NCBI RefSeq assembly: GCF_000711215.1
Contig: NZ_JOMF01000005.1
Location: forward strand, 248,001 to 312,000
Reading direction: 5' to 3'
DNA: 64,000 nucleotides
Source: Methanomicrobium mobile BP
GTDB taxonomy: Archaea > Halobacteriota > Methanomicrobia > Methanomicrobiales > Methanomicrobiaceae
The translations under genes were made by a program, and so were the position numbers. The notes under the pieces are model-generated. The model was not told the origin of the DNA. It worked only from the letters and a program-made list of their open reading frames with translations, and made no database searches. Positions 12,158-29,099 of the stretch are shown in pieces; position 1 is the stretch's first letter, and every line of letters begins with the position of its first letter.

Positions 12158-12901
12158 ATGCTAAAAGCAGCAATTGACACGGAAGTTTTTAAGGAAGCAG
12201 TAGAAGTAGTTGCGGCAATTGTAAGCGAATGCCGCTTAAATATCAGTGCAAACGGACTGGCGGTCCGTGCCGTCGACACGGCAAACGTCGCCATGATCTC
12301 GCTCGAACTCGGCGCACCGGCATTCAACACCTTTGCCGCAGGAGACAGCCAGATTGGTCTTGACATCAGCAAACTGAAGAACATTGTCGCCTCTATAAAC
12401 AAAGCCGACGTCCTCACGCTCGATCTGCCCGACGGCGCCTATAAGATGGAACTCGCATACGGCGGATTCAAGTACTCAATCTCACTTCTGGATGTAAACA
12501 CGGTAAGAAAAGACCCCAACCTCCCGTCAATACAGCTCCCGGGAAAAGTCGTCATCGCCGGCGCCGAGCTCAACAACGCCATCAAGGCGGCATCGCTTGT
12601 CTCGGATAAGATTGCATTCGGCATCAATCCCGACAACGAGACCTTCTACATGGAGGCGGACGGCGACACCGACCACATCAATCTCGAGATCAAGGCAGCC
12701 GACCTCAAGACCTTTATTCCGGCGGAAGCGCGTTCGCTCTTCTCGCTTGACTACTTAAAGGACATGGGACGTGTAATGAGCAAAGCGGAAGAAGTCGAGA
12801 TATTCCTCGGAAAAGACCACCCCGTGAAGTTTGTATTCACGATTGCCGGCGGCGAAGGCAAAGTAGAGTATCTTCTTGCACCGCGCATCGAATCTGACTG
12901 A
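12158..12901 (+). CDS. pcn: DNA polymerase sliding clamp PCNA
   Basis: PCNA forms the homotrimeric ring that tethers polymerases, ligase and FEN1 to DNA. The 247-aa product opens MLKAAIDTEVFKEAVEVV, has the LDISKLKNI DNA-facing helix region, an interdomain connector with PNLPSIQLPGK, and the conserved C-terminal YLLAPRIESD. Length matches archaeal PCNA (245-250 aa). It is directly upstream of priL with a 35-nt gap, a sensible replication operon. Confidence 0.96.
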   Translation: MLKAAIDTEVFKEAVEVVAAIVSECRLNISANGLAVRAVDTANVAMISLELGAPAFNTFAAGDSQIGLDISKLKNIVASINKADVLTLDLPDGAYKMELAYGGFKYSISLLDVNTVRKDPNLPSIQLPGKVVIAGAELNNAIKAASLVSDKIAFGINPDNETFYMEADGDTDHINLEIKAADLKTFIPAEARSLFSLDYLKDMGRVMSKAEEVEIFLGKDHPVKFVFTIAGGEGKVEYLLAPRIESD

Positions 12902-12936
12902 ACGGTCACATTCTCTTTATTTCCTTAAAAACAAAG

Positions 12937-14127
12937 ATGCCGATAGAATTTGACAAGAAAGAACTTGTAAAATATCCTTTTTTAAAAGAAGCCCACTCTC
13001 TTGTAAGTCAGAAGGCATATTCGCTCACGAATCTTCTGGAGCTTGAATCCGGCAAGAGGCTGGCTCAAAAAGCGCGGGACAGAATCAAAGCCGCTCTCAA
13101 CGCGGATTATGTCTTTGACAATGTCACGGGTGCATCGGGCGAAATTCCCGAACATGAGATATTGTCCTACGCCATCTCACGCATGATAGTCTCCTGCATG
13201 AACGAGCGCCCCGTCATCGACAAACTCTGCCGCTACGAATCCGAACGCGCCGCATATTTCCTTCAGCGCGAAGAACCCGAAAAGAAGGAGTATATCGCAC
13301 GCAGTCTGGGCATTAACCTGAGATCGGGTGAGATGAAGGTCAACGAATACGTGGAACTCGTAAGGGACCTTCACGACTCCAAGTGGCAGCTTGTCAACCG
13401 CGACGTAAACGCGGGCAATGTCGCCGTCAGCCGCGACGAGGCTGAAGAACTCTTAAAGGAGCGCATCCGCAGCATGCTCCACAGCCAGCTCCCGCTCCCC
13501 GTACCCGAAGAGATAAAGGAGAAGTTCAAGCCGCTCTCGGAAGAGGTATCCGCGGTCTACAAAGAGAGGGTAATGGAGCAGTTCGGCGAGGTCGACGAGG
13601 GCGCGTTTCCGCCGTGCATGAAAGCCATAATTTCGTCGGTAACGGACGGCACCAATATCCCGCATACCGCAAGGTTTTCCCTGACGGCATTCATGCATAC
13701 CATCGGCATGGACATCAGCGGCATTGTGGGCGTATTCACGCGTGCTCCGGACTTTAACGCCGACATGACGATGTATCAGGTGGATCACATCTCGGGAGGC
13801 GGGGGAACGGAATACACGCCGCCGCAGTGCGTCACCATGAAGACATACGGACTCTGCTGTCAGGACGCAATCTGTAAATCAAAGAAGATTCAGCACCCTC
13901 TGAGCTATTACAAGTATAAGAAGAAGGTCACGGGAAACACATCCGGCGCATCTTCAAAGTCGGCATCCGCGCCGTCAACCGCGGCAACGCCAGCGTCCGC
14001 GCATTCATCCCCCGCATCGCCGGCACACCCCAAGTCCGACAGAATAGGTGCGAGGATTGACGCAAAAGAGCGCGAAAGGGCGGCTAAAAATGCCGATAAT
14101 CAGATAAAATCAGATACGGGAAGATAA
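12937..14127 (+). CDS. priL: DNA primase large subunit PriL
   Basis: The product is the Fe-S regulatory subunit that acts with PriS to make primers. An N-terminal helical domain (residues 1-200) is followed by the cluster domain with FPPCMKAI, the HTARFSLTAFMHTIGMD helix, CVTMKTYGLC and HPLSYY, all at expected positions. From about residue 330 on it carries an unusual low-complexity Ser/Ala/Pro tail (SSKSASAPSTAATPASAHS) ending in a charged helix, which most PriL proteins lack. It is separated by 35 nt from pcn and is followed by a T-rich gap. Confidence 0.92.
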   Translation: MPIEFDKKELVKYPFLKEAHSLVSQKAYSLTNLLELESGKRLAQKARDRIKAALNADYVFDNVTGASGEIPEHEILSYAISRMIVSCMNERPVIDKLCRYESERAAYFLQREEPEKKEYIARSLGINLRSGEMKVNEYVELVRDLHDSKWQLVNRDVNAGNVAVSRDEAEELLKERIRSMLHSQLPLPVPEEIKEKFKPLSEEVSAVYKERVMEQFGEVDEGAFPPCMKAIISSVTDGTNIPHTARFSLTAFMHTIGMDISGIVGVFTRAPDFNADMTMYQVDHISGGGGTEYTPPQCVTMKTYGLCCQDAICKSKKIQHPLSYYKYKKKVTGNTSGASSKSASAPSTAATPASAHSSPASPAHPKSDRIGARIDAKERERAAKNADNQIKSDTGR

Positions 14128-22167: not shown

Positions 22168-22686
22168 ATACCTTAATCATGTATGGTGCGTCCGAAAACA
22201 GGTGCCCGCAAAAAAACTGCTGGTACAAAGCAATTTGTAATTTACGAAAACAATAGCGTTTTGATTTCCGGGTATTACTTTTGTAATGTCCGTATTCTTC
22301 TGGCTGTTCGTATTTTGCTATGCTCTTCATCCATCACAGGAAACCGGATTTTAACCCCGATTACCCCTGTTTAAGTTCTTTGCGCAACCTGCCGTGGTCT
22401 GCACAATGATTGCAATAAGATAGCACACTTATGTATAATAATTGTTTCGTATGGGGGATTTGATGTGCGAATGTTTGTGTGTCATATGCCGAACCCGTAT
22501 CGAATTTGTGACCGGCTTAAAGGAAAATCACGGTGCTATTTCAAAATTTATTCTTATTTACTTAATTCACAAAAATTACATAATAGGTGATATATACACT
22601 GACCGAACAATAACTACACAATCTGTGATGTCACAGCTAACGGATAAGACCGTAGGGATTTGTGTCTGATCTGGAGGAGTCTGAAT
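22168..22686. promoter_or_regulatory. Left boundary gap and promoter region of the ddmDE-like operon
   Basis: This 519-bp gap is AT-rich and free of credible genes. A TATA-like GATATATAC at about 22588-22596 would start transcription near 22616. Within the predicted leader is the imperfect palindrome CTGTGA-TG-TCACAG (22623-22636), a candidate operator, and GGAGGAG (22673-22679) seven nt before the ATG. No tRNA, integrase or clear flanking repeat was found. Confidence 0.45.
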
Positions 22687-25600
22687 ATGAAGCAGCATGT
22701 AATTGCGAGAGCGACAGAAAGATTCTGTCTTGACAAAGAGCACAAGAACGGTATTTTGATCGAGGGCTTCCCTACCGGATTGGGAAAGAGCCATGAAGCC
22801 TGCTATGCAATGCTGGATGTTATTCAGAAAGATCCCGATGTGAAATTCATTTTTATCTGTAACCAAACGAAAAATCTTCCATATGATCTTCTTTTTAAGA
22901 TTGCCAAAATAGACTTCAAAATGGGGGAGGAGAAGTTTAAGAAACTCGTCCTTCCGTTGAAATCCAACATCGATTCTTTCACCGAGAACTACAAGGATTC
23001 GATGGAGAAGAGCATCAAGACCTTGTTCGCTGAAAGCGGTATCGATGATGGAGTTCTAAGGAATGTTACCTATTACAGGAATCATTATAAAACGGTCAAA
23101 AAAAGCAACACTGATCCTTTATACATCTCACAGGTAAGGACGGAATATGAGAGTGCCGAGAGGGATTTCAGAAACGCAGTACACAAAGTCCTGAAACCAC
23201 TTCAGAAGCCGTCTGCCAGAGTCAATAAGATCAATACCGAGGACACATACAAATGGATAAGGGAACTCTACCCTGCGGTGGATTTCGATACTTACAGAAT
23301 AGTCCTAATGTCCGATGCAAAATTCCTTTACACAATTGATCCGATTGTTGCCGCACCTTTCACAATATGGTCCGAGACAGATCTGAGGAGTCAGAAGGAC
23401 AAGGGGAACGGGGACGGCGAGCCTTCGGAGCAATCCATACTACTTGATCACATAATTATCATAGATGAATTCGATGCTTTCAAGAGAGTTATCCAGGACA
23501 CTCTGATTGAGGAGCAAAAGGACGAGGTAGATGCCGTTCGTGCATTCCGTAATCTCTATCCCAGACTCCAACAATGGAGAAACCTCCCCACATTGATGAT
23601 TACAGAATCCTCTTGGTGGATATCAGTCAAGAAAATCCTGATCTCTGAGCGTTTTAGGAAACTAATCGAGAATTCCACAAAGATCCAGCAGAAATATCAC
23701 ATGGAGTACCTGTTCAAACAGTCTGCTCAGGATGATAATGGAAATCTGACTGATTCTCTCAGCACCTCATTCATGTTCAGAGATTATGAACCATACAGTG
23801 TCGGCAACGCATTCACAGTACGCACTGAGATGGAGATGAGTTATAACAGGATTCTCACAGGAAAGGGAATCAATTCCACTTCGTCCCGATTCAGTAGCCT
23901 TTTTGGGAATCTTAACGAATTGTTCATTCAGATTGCCAAACTGGTACGTGATTTGGCGTTCAACTATATGTATGCGCAGAAAGATGATTCTTCAGATTCA
24001 TCAGATATTCTTAGCGATGAACACAGATCTTTCACCAACTGCGTTGATTCAGTAATCGATGCGCTGGATATGGAGCCTGACCTTGCCCGATTTATCAAGA
24101 CGAAAGTCATCCACAACCGTCTGAAATCCGGTTCAGAGAAACGTTTGGCTCTGGATGATCCAATTTTCTTCAGCAGGGGATTCGGTTACATCAGCATGAG
24201 GGATTCGATTGACAAACAACTCCAGACCCATCTGTACTATACCGGTTACGACACCACACCGGAGACGGTACTCAGACACATGGCGGAGCGAACGAAAGTA
24301 ATTGCCATGTCTGCTACCGCAGAAGTCGAATCCCCGCTGTGTAACTTCCATCTTCAGTATCTCAGGGACGGCGGGGTGTACTTCCATGAGTTCAATGACG
24401 ATGAAAAAAAGGAGATCCATGAGCTGATTCACTCTCTGAGGGCAGGTTTCGAGGATAAAAAAAGTATACTCCACTGCGAGTGTCTGCCCCCCGTCGTCAA
24501 CTACAGCCGTGCTATCTGGGAGGATCTGTTTGATGATGAGGACGATGCCGACGACCTGTACAGGAAACTTGGATTCACCGAAGACGGTAAGACATTTGCA
24601 GAGATTAGATATGTGCGTGTTGCTCAGGCGATAGAGGCTTTCATTTCCCACGATGATATCTATTCGATGATAGGATTCTTCTCTGCTCACGTCAAGGATT
24701 CGTCCGATGGAAAATTTACTGTTAAAAAGATGAATTACGTCATCGAGAAGATTGCAAAGAAACACAAGATAGCAATCGGAGTAAAGTGGTACAGTTCTCA
24801 AGAGGAAGAGATTATTAATCCCGAGGCTGGAAATCCGTCAGCATACATCATACAGATCAACGGATCAAACTACGACGGGATGAAAGACGAGATTTTGAGC
24901 AGGCTTTCCGGCAAAGCGAAAGATTGCAACGGCATCGGTCAGAAGGTTTTCTTGATAACCGCATATCAGACGCTCGGTGCAGGGCAGAACCTTCAATATG
25001 ATGTGCCTGATAACCTTGCCAATGATATGGTGTGGATTAGGGGTGCCATGCCCGATTATGATCTGTTCAGCAAGGAAAAGGACTTCGATGCTATCTACCT
25101 TGATGACCCCACCAACATAGGACCACAGATCGAATTCGGGAAGAAGGGAACGCTGGATAATTATCTCTTTTACGCCGAATATCTGGATGCAACTAATCAT
25201 ATCACACTTAATGAGAAGCATTTGGAGATACAGAACGCATTCAGACAGTGTTACACCCCCAACATGGATCGCCAGCCTAACCACTTCAAGAAATGCTTCG
25301 CCTATATCCTCGCCAAAGCGCAGGTGGTGAATCAGGCGATAGGGCGCATGTCCCGTACAGGCTTGAAGATGCCCAACGTTTATCTGTTCCTAGACAACGA
25401 ATTGGTCAATGGAGGAACGTTCGCTTTGCCTAAGGAATACTACGGTTCCTATCTCAGTTATGAATTTGAGGCCCTTTACGATAAAGTGCACAAAAAGAAT
25501 GAAAAGGAGGACCTGGATTACGGTGAGGAGATGATCCTTGACGATTGTCTCCGTACATCACATAACTTCGTCGGATATCTGGACGATCTCCGTTTCGCAG

Positions 25601-26424
25601 TATACGGCGGCGATACAGAAGCCATTGCAAAATGGCAGGAACTTAGGGACTTTGTTCTCCACAATCCAACATGTCCGATGAGGATGGACGGACTTAGCAA
25701 GATCCAGAATACTATCCATAGGTATGGATATATCACACCTCCAAATAGGTCAGATTGCTATTGGTTCACATTGAAATTTGACTTTGACCAGAACGGAACG
25801 GATGGATTGGAGATTAGTTTTGACGGACCCCCGGCAAAGCTTGAGAAAGGGGACCTTGAGAAGAAGTGGTACTCCGCAAGTCCGGAGACAGCAAAGCTCA
25901 ATCTGATGTCGGAGATCGATTACGTTAAGAAGTACCTGGAAGAGCAGAACATTCCCTTAATATTTGAACCCAACGACAAACTGATGTCGCCTCCGCTGTT
26001 CCGCAACATCTTCATGGGGGGGCTGGGTGAGATCGTCGGTAAGAAAATGATCGAACACCTGACCGATGGAAAGGTTACGCTGAACGAGATGCCCGACAAA
26101 TACTACGAGATGTTCGATTACTCCCTTGGAAACGGGGTTTTTGTGGATTTCAAGGACTGGAACGAGAGCAACTACTATGACGAGAAAAAGACAGAGAGGA
26201 CGATCAAGTTCATATTTGAGAAACTGGAGAAATGCGAAGGTTCCAGGGTTTATGTGATAAACATAGTCACGGACGGCAGCAGAAAATACGAACCCTATCA
26301 CACGTACAAAAGATCAAACGGAAAGGAGATTGTTACAATTCCTTACATCTATATGGTAAAGAACGGAAAGGTATTACCTAACGGGGAATTCATTAAGAAA
26401 CTTATGGAGGAAAGTCATGAGTAA
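22687..26424 (+). CDS. DdmD-like helicase-nuclease
   Basis: The 1245-aa product is a superfamily 2 helicase fused to a nuclease. Visible motifs are Walker A GFPTGLGKS (27-35), DEFD Walker B (260-263), SAT (542-544), motif V AYQTLGAGQN (759-768) and QAIGRMSR motif VI (883-890). The spacing between motif I and II (about 225 residues) shows a large insert. The C-terminus has a PD-(D/E)XK layout: E1115, FDYSL with D1144, and VDFKDW with D1154 and K1156. This order, the size and the following gene match DdmD, which in Vibrio cholerae translocates on and degrades plasmid DNA once recruited by DdmE. DdmD identity is inferred from architecture; a DinG- or Cas3-like defence helicase is the alternative. 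The start is set by the GGAGGAG site, not the upstream GTG at 22660. Confidence 0.8.
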   Translation: MKQHVIARATERFCLDKEHKNGILIEGFPTGLGKSHEACYAMLDVIQKDPDVKFIFICNQTKNLPYDLLFKIAKIDFKMGEEKFKKLVLPLKSNIDSFTENYKDSMEKSIKTLFAESGIDDGVLRNVTYYRNHYKTVKKSNTDPLYISQVRTEYESAERDFRNAVHKVLKPLQKPSARVNKINTEDTYKWIRELYPAVDFDTYRIVLMSDAKFLYTIDPIVAAPFTIWSETDLRSQKDKGNGDGEPSEQSILLDHIIIIDEFDAFKRVIQDTLIEEQKDEVDAVRAFRNLYPRLQQWRNLPTLMITESSWWISVKKILISERFRKLIENSTKIQQKYHMEYLFKQSAQDDNGNLTDSLSTSFMFRDYEPYSVGNAFTVRTEMEMSYNRILTGKGINSTSSRFSSLFGNLNELFIQIAKLVRDLAFNYMYAQKDDSSDSSDILSDEHRSFTNCVDSVIDALDMEPDLARFIKTKVIHNRLKSGSEKRLALDDPIFFSRGFGYISMRDSIDKQLQTHLYYTGYDTTPETVLRHMAERTKVIAMSATAEVESPLCNFHLQYLRDGGVYFHEFNDDEKKEIHELIHSLRAGFEDKKSILHCECLPPVVNYSRAIWEDLFDDEDDADDLYRKLGFTEDGKTFAEIRYVRVAQAIEAFISHDDIYSMIGFFSAHVKDSSDGKFTVKKMNYVIEKIAKKHKIAIGVKWYSSQEEEIINPEAGNPSAYIIQINGSNYDGMKDEILSRLSGKAKDCNGIGQKVFLITAYQTLGAGQNLQYDVPDNLANDMVWIRGAMPDYDLFSKEKDFDAIYLDDPTNIGPQIEFGKKGTLDNYLFYAEYLDATNHITLNEKHLEIQNAFRQCYTPNMDRQPNHFKKCFAYILAKAQVVNQAIGRMSRTGLKMPNVYLFLDNELVNGGTFALPKEYYGSYLSYEFEALYDKVHKKNEKEDLDYGEEMILDDCLRTSHNFVGYLDDLRFAVYGGDTEAIAKWQELRDFVLHNPTCPMRMDGLSKIQNTIHRYGYITPPNRSDCYWFTLKFDFDQNGTDGLEISFDGPPAKLEKGDLEKKWYSASPETAKLNLMSEIDYVKKYLEEQNIPLIFEPNDKLMSPPLFRNIFMGGLGEIVGKKMIEHLTDGKVTLNEMPDKYYEMFDYSLGNGVFVDFKDWNESNYYDEKKTERTIKFIFEKLEKCEGSRVYVINIVTDGSRKYEPYHTYKRSNGKEIVTIPYIYMVKNGKVLPNGEFIKKLMEESHE

Positions 26425-28501
26425 GAATAAGGAACACAAGCAAACAGACGGTATACTGGTTAATCGTCTGAATTTCAAGGTCAACGAGGTGGAATTCAAC
26501 AAGAGATACACGATCCTGCATGCTGAATACGGCAAATATGAGATCCGGAAAGAAGCCGTACGTCATCTGAGTACGTTCCATACCGTCAAGGCCATACGGT
26601 ATGAGTATGGGGGAACATCGTTTTACATCCTTTTGGATGGCAATTCCGAAAAGGAAAAGATTATCCAGGATCTGAAAAAGATCGTCCTAAATAATCCTGT
26701 CAATGAGGAGAATTACAGTCAGGTAGCACCCGATATAGTCTTCGAATTGCTACTCATTGGTCTCAGTTACAACGATTCGGATAAGGAAGATGATGGGGAT
26801 AATCTGTCCTATTCCAATCTGGATGGCGGAGTGTACACGTTTGAACCCGGAGACATCTACAAGGGCGACCGTGTGGTCACGTTCAATCTAAAGGCACGCC
26901 CAGCCAAGGACTGTGTGGAGCTCTTCGGAGAGACACAGTTGATGTTCCCTGCGCAGACATTCGCTACCATAGCGAAGATGAATGAGAAAGAAGCCGATAG
27001 GAAGTACCTCAAAGATCTCCCAAGATTCCAGATGGTCGACAACACATATATGAAACTCTCCTCCAAAGGAGTGAAGTTTGGTTCCGGCGTAGAATATGTG
27101 AAGCATGGCTATCGCGGAATGAATAAGGCTAGCATCGATTTCCTCGGCATTAGCAGTGTGGATGAGTTTGATAAGAGTAAGATGGGGCGTACCCGCCTAA
27201 CCCTCAGGAAGATGCGCCGTGAGTATGCCGATATCGGGTTGGAAGTGGAATTCGTCCGCACTACTCTGTTCGATGGAAACAAATACACCAAGAAGAACCC
27301 TGGTTTTACCAAATACCTTACGGAACTGTGGAGCGACAAAAAGATTAACGTCGTCGATAAGGTCAAGAGTCCCACGTCAGAGTCAATAGTAAAAGGCGTC
27401 AGCATGGAACTCAAGGTGCTGTTCAATGTTGATACAGTTCCTTCCGAGGATGTTGTGAAGGGCGAATACAATATAGTGGTCATTTCAAAGAAAATTAGGG
27501 ATCCTAATCACAAGGCTTACGATGATGCAATGGTCCAGCATATTTCGGTGGAAAGTTTCGCCAAGAAATATCATCGCAAGGATCCTGCAAGTTTGAAGGC
27601 CCTACATGAAGAGATTCAGAGCGGAAAGATCCCTGGAAACCGCAGGAATAGTCTGGAGATGTGGCTTTCGGAGTTCATTATCAAAGGTGACATAATCAAC
27701 AACACCCAGACCTTTTTCGGATGGTACAAGGAACACCTAATGAATGTAGAGCCTGTCAGCACTTTGGACCGTACATGGAGGTTCTACGATCGTGTCAGAA
27801 TAGAGAACCCCGATCCCGAAAACAGGAAGGAAGCAAAGTACAGTGACAAGATGGGCTGTCTAGAGATGAATCCTAACGGGGATATGTCCTATAGGATCCT
27901 AGAGGAAGCCGAGGTTAAAGAGGAATTTGGACTCCAGTTAATCTGGAATCAATTCAATAGGAACCAGAGCAACATCAAAGGTGTGATGAGCGATGGCGAG
28001 AACACGTATGCATTCCTTTCTACTGATGTAAAGATGATCCCTGAGTTAGACTCTATTCGTCAGAAACTTAGGGACAACGAGAAAAACCATGCCGATGACA
28101 AATCTGTATCATTGACAGGCGGCATAAAGACGAAATCGGATTACGAGCTGTATCTGAAAGCATGCACGGATGTGCGTTACGCGTATGTGAAGAATGAATG
28201 CTATTACTTCGTTGGTGTTCGTTCGGAGGACATTAAGTTCGGATTGTATTGGTCTGCAGGTCTTCTAAAGATAAAGACGCTGGAAGGAAGGGAGAAGATT
28301 CCGGAAGTCGTATTTGATATGATGCTGGTGCCGTTCGTCAGACTCAACCGCTTCACTATCGTCCCATATCCGTTCAAGTACCTCCGCGAGTTTGAAAAAA
28401 CCAAAGGTTTGGAGAATTATATTCCCGAGGAACCGAGCGAGGAAGAGACTGGAAAAGATAGTGAGCATCAGTGGACACTTGATGAGTTCGGTTTGATATG
28501 A
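26417..28501 (+). CDS. DdmE-like putative short Argonaute-type protein
   Basis: This 694-residue product starts 8 nt inside the helicase gene, after a strong GGAGGAAAG site, so the two are translationally coupled. Length is that of DdmE (about 690 aa), a catalytically inactive DNA-guided prokaryotic Argonaute. Residues 349-380 (YNIVVISKKIRDP...VQHISVES) resemble the MID domain that holds a guide 5' end, with a candidate Gln at 374. The PIWI-like C-terminal part (about 400-694) shows no catalytic DEDX tetrad, as expected for DdmE. A short N-terminal domain and a linker precede it. No standard family is obvious by eye; the call relies on gene order, size and the MID-like stretch. Confidence 0.7.
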   Translation: MSKNKEHKQTDGILVNRLNFKVNEVEFNKRYTILHAEYGKYEIRKEAVRHLSTFHTVKAIRYEYGGTSFYILLDGNSEKEKIIQDLKKIVLNNPVNEENYSQVAPDIVFELLLIGLSYNDSDKEDDGDNLSYSNLDGGVYTFEPGDIYKGDRVVTFNLKARPAKDCVELFGETQLMFPAQTFATIAKMNEKEADRKYLKDLPRFQMVDNTYMKLSSKGVKFGSGVEYVKHGYRGMNKASIDFLGISSVDEFDKSKMGRTRLTLRKMRREYADIGLEVEFVRTTLFDGNKYTKKNPGFTKYLTELWSDKKINVVDKVKSPTSESIVKGVSMELKVLFNVDTVPSEDVVKGEYNIVVISKKIRDPNHKAYDDAMVQHISVESFAKKYHRKDPASLKALHEEIQSGKIPGNRRNSLEMWLSEFIIKGDIINNTQTFFGWYKEHLMNVEPVSTLDRTWRFYDRVRIENPDPENRKEAKYSDKMGCLEMNPNGDMSYRILEEAEVKEEFGLQLIWNQFNRNQSNIKGVMSDGENTYAFLSTDVKMIPELDSIRQKLRDNEKNHADDKSVSLTGGIKTKSDYELYLKACTDVRYAYVKNECYYFVGVRSEDIKFGLYWSAGLLKIKTLEGREKIPEVVFDMMLVPFVRLNRFTIVPYPFKYLREFEKTKGLENYIPEEPSEEETGKDSEHQWTLDEFGLI

Positions 28502-29099
28502 TGTTTAATTGCTAAATTGAAATCAATGTAAAATGTCTAAATAATCTCACAAACCATTTTTCAAAAGACTCAGTAAAAAAACTCGGTAAAAATCTCAGAA
28601 AAGTGTCGGCACGGACTGAGATTCTTAGTCCGCTGCGGTGCATGTTTTGGAATCCGAAATTCGGTGTTTAGTGTCTGAAATTCGGTTTATGAAATGTGTG
28701 TAGGTTAATCTGTGTGAATAATTGTGTTAATAGTGATTTGTGCGAATATTGGGGGTATTTTTATTGAGTTATTGGGTTATCTGTATTTCCGGTAATGCCG
28801 GTTATTCTGTTGTGTTGTGTGTCTGTTGTGCTTTTGTTTGTTGTGTTTGTTGTGTCTGTTGTGGTTTTATGTGGTTTTGCGGTATTTGTGTCTGATTGTG
28901 TTTAATTTTGGTCTGATAGTTTCTGATTGTGTCTGTTTTGATTGTGTCTGTTCTTCCGGAGCTGCGTTTTTCTCTCGCCCGGAATCGAACGGTGATTATC
29001 TCTTGTGCCTCCCAAAAAATATTTTTTAGGGGGTTGTCATGGAATGTTTCGGCAAATAATTGCTCTGTGATATTGGATAGTTCTCAGCGTGAGACGTAT
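28502..29099. other. Right boundary gap of the island, with T/G-rich tract and hairpin
   Basis: The gap after the ddmE-like gene holds an imperfect hairpin at 28613-28631 (GGACTGAG...TCTTAGTCC). From about 28690 to 28960 the plus strand becomes T/G-rich with TGTTGTG and TGTCTGTT repeats. The translated frames are low complexity. No terminator-like T-run was seen directly after the ddmE-like gene. Confidence 0.45.

What the first reader, a model, noticed from the sequence alone, without database searches (positions are those of the whole stretch)
22687..28501. Candidate DdmD-DdmE plasmid-elimination system in a methanogenic archaeon
A two-gene operon encodes an SF2 helicase with a C-terminal PD-(D/E)XK nuclease (1245 aa) and, in an 8-nt overlap after a strong Shine-Dalgarno site, a 694-residue protein. 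DdmD is a helicase-nuclease of about 1190 aa and DdmE an inactive Argonaute of about 690 aa; both size and order match. Helicase motifs I, II, III, V and VI and the nuclease residues E1115, D1144, D1154 and K1156 are visible; a MID-like segment with Q374 lies in the second protein. DdmDE has been characterised in Vibrio cholerae as a plasmid defence. I know of no archaeal description, so this may be the undescribed system of the window. It could also be a distinct helicase-plus-Argonaute-like family.
Basis: partly seen in the sequence, partly recalled or inferred. Interest (0 to 1): 0.92.

Follow-up and report, generated by a model that had tools for sequence, protein, structure and literature searches.

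The report
Archaeal DdmDE with a clamp-binding tail
A methane-producing archaeon carries a recently acquired, very divergent copy of the bacterial plasmid-destroying system DdmDE, and its Argonaute-like half ends in a short tag that looks just like the one archaeal replication enzymes use to dock on the DNA sliding clamp.

Summary
Window 22687-26424 encodes a DdmD-type helicase-nuclease and 26417-28501 a DdmE-type inactive Argonaute. Profiles of these proteins and their relatives match solved DdmD (E 3e-159) and DdmE (E 6e-71). AlphaFold models hit DdmD and DdmE first in the PDB. Helicase residues and the nuclease residues E1115, D1144, D1154 and K1156 are invariant in 40 relatives; the MID residues Q374 and K423 are kept in 98-100% of 58.

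The pair sits alone in a ~6.1 kb insertion between the DUF7121 gene and ftsZ. A sister species has 94 bp there, and three further congeners are also empty. It is not the only archaeal case: four other methane-cycling archaea carry DdmDE pairs that form one clade beside cyanobacteria. The window pair is a separate long branch.

New here: after the conserved end of DdmE there is a 36-residue disordered acidic tail ending in QWTLDEFGLI. This matches the C-terminal PCNA-interacting (PIP) boxes of the same genome's FEN1 (QKTLDQWFG), RFC-L (QSTLFSF), RNase HII (QRTLFDY) and PolD (QLDLSSFM). None of 63 other DdmE proteins has it. I propose a DdmDE variant tethered to the archaeal clamp. Plasmid elimination and clamp binding are inferred, not shown.

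The parts
22455..28585 (.). Insertion of about 6.1 kb that holds only the ddmDE operon; sister species G087 has 94 bp here
   Evidence: blastn of window 18-34 kb against G087, G013, G025, G075. GC 44% against 49-51% in the flanks. No flanking repeats found.
22673..22679 (+). Shine-Dalgarno site GGAGGAG of ddmD
   Evidence: sequence
22687..26424 (+). ddmD: SF2 helicase with C-terminal PD-(D/E)XK nuclease, 1245 aa
   Evidence: PADLOC 5.1e-24; PDB phmmer 3.7e-30; profile 2.7e-159; AF2 pLDDT 83.5 and Foldseek 1.3e-48 to L. casei DdmD
22774..22791 (+). Walker A, TGLGKS (residues 30-35)
   Evidence: T30, G31, G33, K34 invariant in 40 sequences
23464..23475 (+). Walker B / DEFD box (residues 260-263)
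   Evidence: D260, E261, F262, D263 invariant
25333..25356 (+). Helicase motif VI QAIGRMSR (residues 883-890)
   Evidence: Q883, G886, R887, R890 invariant
26029..26154 (+). PD-(D/E)XK nuclease core E1115...D1144...D1154-x-K1156
   Evidence: all four invariant in 40 sequences
26406..26410 (+). Shine-Dalgarno site GGAGG of ddmE, inside the end of ddmD
   Evidence: sequence
26417..28501 (+). ddmE: catalytically inactive Argonaute-like protein, 694 aa, 8-nt overlap with ddmD
   Evidence: PADLOC 7.5e-5; PDB phmmer 6.5e-8; profile 6.2e-71; AF2 pLDDT 82.7 and Foldseek 2e-31 to L. casei DdmE
27536..27685 (+). MID-type guide 5'-end pocket residues Q374 ... K423
   Evidence: 98% and 100% conserved in 58 DdmE; the match to Ago MID Q/K is by recalled motif, inference
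28391..28498 (+). 36-residue C-terminal tail after the conserved KYLRE end of the DdmE core; predicted disordered
   Evidence: Other DdmE have 18 residues or fewer here, median 8, n = 63; AF2 pLDDT under 50 for residues 670-694
28469..28498 (+). PIP-box-like peptide QWTLDEFGLI at the extreme C-terminus (Q685, L688, F691)
   Evidence: Same motif and position as FEN1, RFC-L, RNase HII and PolD of the same genome; chance 0.02-0.7%
12158..12901 (+). PCNA sliding clamp of the host, the proposed partner of the DdmE tail (separate locus)
   Evidence: PF00705 7.6e-11

Best explanation
This is an intact DdmDE plasmid-elimination operon in an archaeal chromosome, acquired as a single ~6.1 kb insertion after its species split from its nearest sampled relative. 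By homology, DdmE holds a short DNA guide in its MID pocket, pairs with invading plasmid DNA without cutting it, and recruits DdmD. DdmD then loads on the displaced strand, translocates and degrades the plasmid with its nuclease. Inferred addition: the archaeal DdmE has gained a flexible acidic tail ending in a PIP box that docks it on the host PCNA clamp. This would bring guide loading or target search to DNA being replicated, where small multicopy plasmids are over-represented. Shown here: gene content, family membership, fold, conserved active sites, the insertion, the tail and its match to host PIP boxes. Inferred: guide use, plasmid degradation, PCNA binding and its purpose. The confidence given is for a working DdmDE-type system; for the tail as a true PCNA-binding element it is about 0.65.
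For: Family. Active sites. Operon conserved as D then E with small gap or overlap in most of 80 loci. Insertion. PIP tail: host FEN1 GQKTLDQWFG, RFC-L ETQSTLFSF, RNase HII LRQRTLFDY and PolD DP2 QLDLSSFM against DdmE QWTLDEFGLI. Tail absent from 63 DdmE homologues. Only one of 183 window frames of at least 100 aa ends in such a motif. C-terminal PIP boxes are typical of archaeal PCNA partners (PMC4858679). DdmDE mechanism as reviewed in PMC12409362.
Against: The window pair is very divergent: at most 27% (DdmD) and 24% (DdmE) identity to the relatives in the trees, long branches. The tail is known from one sequence only, so its conservation cannot be tested. The second aromatic of a full PIP box is replaced by G. 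No plasmid, guide or expression data exist here.
Confidence: 0.85

Rival explanations
1. It is a plain DdmDE system; the DdmE tail is a chance PIP look-alike or binds something else.
For: One sequence only; the general pattern Q..[LIM]..[FWY] occurs by chance in 0.4-0.7% of 14-mers; no other DdmE needs it.
Against: Position at the very end, disordered acidic linker, match to the host's own consensus in all four clients checked, chance about 0.02% for Q.TL..[FWY].
Confidence: 0.3
2. It is an ApsAB-like or PIWI-RE/DinG-type helicase-Argonaute pair rather than DdmDE.
For: ApsA and DdmD form one continuous helicase-nuclease family (PMC11096173); the window proteins are divergent.
Against: The partner matches DdmE by HMM, profile and fold, with no alternative family. 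DdmD is the best structural match at 1e-48 against 5e-10 for DinG.
Confidence: 0.04
3. The insert is a bacterial contaminant or an assembly chimera.
For: GC 44% against about 50%; relatives are mostly rumen and gut bacteria; the operon is absent from all congeners.
Against: Both junctions lie in one 360-kb contig whose flanks are syntenic with four congeners. No bacterial genome searched holds a close copy. The tail fits an archaeal clamp, with F at the PIP and not the bacterial clamp-motif position.
Confidence: 0.05
4. The system acts mainly on archaeal viruses or conjugative elements rather than small plasmids.
For: pAgo systems vary in targets; plasmids of this genus were not examined here.
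Against: Characterised DdmDE targets small multicopy plasmids (PMC12409362, PMC13064858); the related ApsAB gave no phage defence (PMC11096173).
Confidence: 0.15

Closest known systems
DdmDE of Lactobacillus casei (PDB 9ix4, 9iw3, 9ixm)
   Same: Gene order, domains, sizes, folds, helicase and nuclease residues; best sequence and structure match of both proteins
   Different: 15-18% identity over the fold; no 36-residue PIP-like tail; bacterial host with a beta clamp
DdmDE of Vibrio cholerae (PDB 8u3k, 9bgk, 9ezy)
   Same: Same two-protein architecture; the KELLIK and P-[FY]-PFK-[YH]-LRE motifs of DdmE are shared
   Different: More distant; genomic-island setting with a WYL regulator upstream (PMC12409362), none here
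DdmDE pairs of Methanoculleus FWC-SCC3, Methanosarcina DH2, Methanolobus bombayensis and Methanoperedens BLZ2
   Same: Archaeal hosts, same operon
   Different: One clade beside cyanobacterial DdmDE; 69% identity between the Methanosarcina and Methanoculleus DdmD against 29% for the window; a common clade with the window is rejected; no PIP tail
ApsAB of Escherichia coli ST38
   Same: Helicase-nuclease plus inactive Argonaute-like protein, antiplasmid
   Different: The ApsB partner has no sequence similarity to DdmE (PMC11096173)

Membership tests
DdmDE | DdmD: SF2 helicase fused to a C-terminal PD-(D/E)XK nuclease with intact catalytic residues | tested here: met
DdmDE | DdmE: Argonaute-like fold | tested here: met
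   Foldseek top six hits are DdmE, then Ago/PIWI; profile 6.2e-71
DdmDE | PIWI part without a catalytic tetrad | tested here: met
   No acidic column reaches 75% conservation between residues 430 and 650; the catalytic positions were not superposed
DdmDE | ddmD followed directly by ddmE in one operon | tested here: met
   8-nt overlap; same order in most relatives
DdmDE | DNA-guided, plasmid-directed; DdmD autoinhibited dimer | not testable with these tools
   needs biochemistry
DdmDE | Eliminates plasmids in vivo | not testable with these tools
   needs an experiment
ApsAB | ApsB-type partner (Y-x3-K...QG...K motif, no similarity to DdmE) | tested here: not met
   Partner matches DdmE; ApsB itself was not compared directly
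PIWI-RE / DinG systems | DinG-type helicase as best relative | tested here: not met
   DinG 5.4e-10 against DdmD 1.3e-48
PCNA-interacting proteins (PIP box) | Q-x-x-[LIM]-x-x-aromatic at an exposed terminus | tested here: met
   QWTLDEF, residues 685-691 of 694, tail predicted disordered; matches four host clients
PCNA-interacting proteins (PIP box) | Second aromatic residue (Q-x-x-h-x-x-a-a) | tested here: not met
   G692 at that place; host RFC-L and RNase HII also end without it
PCNA-interacting proteins (PIP box) | Binds PCNA | not testable with these tools
   needs a binding assay or a complex prediction

The most novel reading that the evidence does not exclude
A DdmDE system was rewired for an archaeal cell by adding a PCNA-binding tail to its Argonaute, so that the replication clamp delivers it to replicating plasmids. 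It would be the first DdmE, and as far as my literature search shows the first prokaryotic Argonaute, tied to a sliding clamp. It would make testable how DdmE finds plasmids and acquires guides.
Probability: 0.5. Interest if true: 0.78.

Novelty: new variant of a known kind. Interest (0 to 1): 0.6.

Why it matters
DdmDE is known from experiments in bacteria only, and how DdmE tells plasmid from chromosome and where it gets its guides is unsettled. A copy in a methanogen shows that the system crosses domains, at least twice by the trees. A host-specific clamp-binding tail would point directly at replication as the place where DdmE meets its target. That can be tested with one peptide and three point mutations. 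It may also matter in practice, since such systems would limit plasmid tools in methanogens.

Tried and rejected
Viral contig scans with both proteins and with the DdmD alignment found no relatives. Pfam and NCBIfam give nothing significant for either protein. I looked for terminal repeats or target duplications at the insertion edges and found none. I looked for PIP or bacterial beta-clamp motifs at the ends of the other DdmD and DdmE proteins and found none beyond the conserved core. I considered one archaeal origin for all five archaeal pairs; it is rejected by AU tests (DdmE p 0.016; DdmD p about 1e-39), with the caveat that the window rows are long branches. The primary DdmDE papers are not in the held library.

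Full report
Observation. DdmD runs from ATG 22687 (Shine-Dalgarno GGAGGAG) to 26424, 1245 aa; DdmE runs from ATG 26417 (Shine-Dalgarno GGAGG inside the end of ddmD) to 28501, 694 aa, with an 8-nt overlap.

Identity. PADLOC names them DdmD (E 5e-24) and DdmE (E 7.5e-5). Single-sequence search of PDB chains finds only DdmD (3.7e-30) and DdmE (6.5e-8). Profiles built from the window proteins and their relatives reach L. casei DdmD at 2.7e-159, V. cholerae DdmD at 4e-121, L. casei DdmE at 6e-71 and V. cholerae DdmE at 1e-42. AlphaFold models (pLDDT 82.7 for DdmE, 83.5 for DdmD residues 1-1200) hit solved DdmE first (2e-31, TM 0.64), then eukaryotic Ago and PIWI, and solved DdmD first (1.3e-48, TM about 0.7), then DinG and XPD at 5e-10 and weaker.

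Anatomy. In 40 DdmD sequences the key residues of Walker A, DEFD, SAT and motif VI and the nuclease residues E1115, D1144, D1154 and K1156 are invariant. In 58 DdmE sequences Q374 is kept in 98%, K423 and D425 in all, and the C-terminal P-F-P-F-K-Y-x-R-E motif in nearly all. Between residues 430 and 650, the PIWI part, no acidic column reaches 75%, which fits a dead Argonaute. The Q...K pair resembles the MID 5'-phosphate pocket of Argonautes; this is inference from established motifs.

Relatives. A scan of 84,980 species genomes with the DdmD alignment gave 135 relatives, the best 80 kept, mostly rumen and gut Bacillota, Bacteroidota, Treponema and Fibrobacter, plus cyanobacteria and four archaea: Methanolobus bombayensis, Methanoperedens BLZ2, Methanoculleus FWC-SCC3 and Methanosarcina DH2. 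63 loci have a ddmE-length gene directly behind ddmD. In Methanomicrobiales 2 of 232 species genomes have DdmD; in a sample of the phylum 3 of 394. The four other archaeal pairs form one clade next to cyanobacteria (DdmE support 100/100), while the window pair is a long separate branch. One archaeal clade is rejected, with a caution for long branches. So there were probably two entries into archaea. The closest rows by path are Clostridia, but no donor can be named.

Insertion. G087, a congener with about 90% DNA identity in this stretch, is colinear up to window 22454 and from 28586 on, with 94 bp in place of 6131 bp. G013, G025 and G075 are also empty. The insert holds only the operon and is AT-richer, 44% GC against 49-51%. 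Recent gain is the simplest reading; loss in four congeners is possible but less simple.

The tail. After the conserved KYLRE end, 63 other DdmE have 18 residues or fewer (median 8); the window has 36, ending ...PEEPSEEETGKDSEHQWTLDEFGLI, predicted disordered. The end matches the archaeal PIP box. In the same genome FEN1 ends GQKTLDQWFG, RFC-L ETQSTLFSF, RNase HII LRQRTLFDY and PolD DP2 QLDLSSFM. All four clients checked carry Q-x-x-L-x-x-aromatic at the extreme C-terminus, as is typical (PMC4858679). Q.TL..[FWY] occurs by chance in about 0.02% and the loose pattern in 0.4-0.7% of such stretches. Of 183 window frames of at least 100 aa, only DdmE ends so. The spacing, aromatic at the seventh place, fits PCNA rather than the bacterial clamp motif (inference). 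Host PCNA is encoded 10 kb away at 12158-12901. I found no paper that links a prokaryotic Argonaute to a clamp, within a library that lacks most subscription journals.

Mechanism. By homology DdmE uses DNA guides to find plasmid DNA and recruits DdmD, which unwinds and nicks or degrades it (reviewed in PMC12409362). My addition, with about 50% confidence, is that the PIP tail couples DdmE to the replication clamp and so to replicating plasmids. The tail could instead serve guide capture at forks or simple local concentration; these cannot be told apart here.

Verdict. Firm member of the DdmDE kind, undescribed in archaea as far as I could search, with one feature not seen in the 63 DdmE compared. 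It is a variant, not a new category.

Noticed in passing
L063, L044, L066, L060, L061, L072, L085 and L075, L077, L084: Two well-supported Bacillota clades of DdmD-like helicase-nucleases have no DdmE-length gene beside them; neighbours differ between loci. Possibly stand-alone or differently partnered DdmD relatives.
   Followed up: partly
L030:11506-16148: In Cesiribacteraceae YIM B00369 the ddmE gene is split by two genes on the other strand (252 and 517 aa, IS21-like by size and order, not tested): a ddmE broken by a mobile element.
   Followed up: no
L012:1260-18860: The Methanosarcina DH2 DdmDE lies among other defence genes: an AbiL pair and a GajB/UvrD-like helicase with an extra C-terminal part directly upstream.
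   Followed up: partly
L005, L006, L007: DdmDE-like pairs are themselves carried on plasmids of Nostoc, Persicobacter and Cetobacterium, so an antiplasmid system travels on plasmids.
   Followed up: no
L031, L032, L059; L046 and L054: Treponema bryantii NK4A124 has three divergent DdmDE loci, and one Paludibacteraceae contig has two.
   Followed up: no
window 12158-14127: PCNA gene followed by the large subunit of archaeal primase.
   Followed up: no
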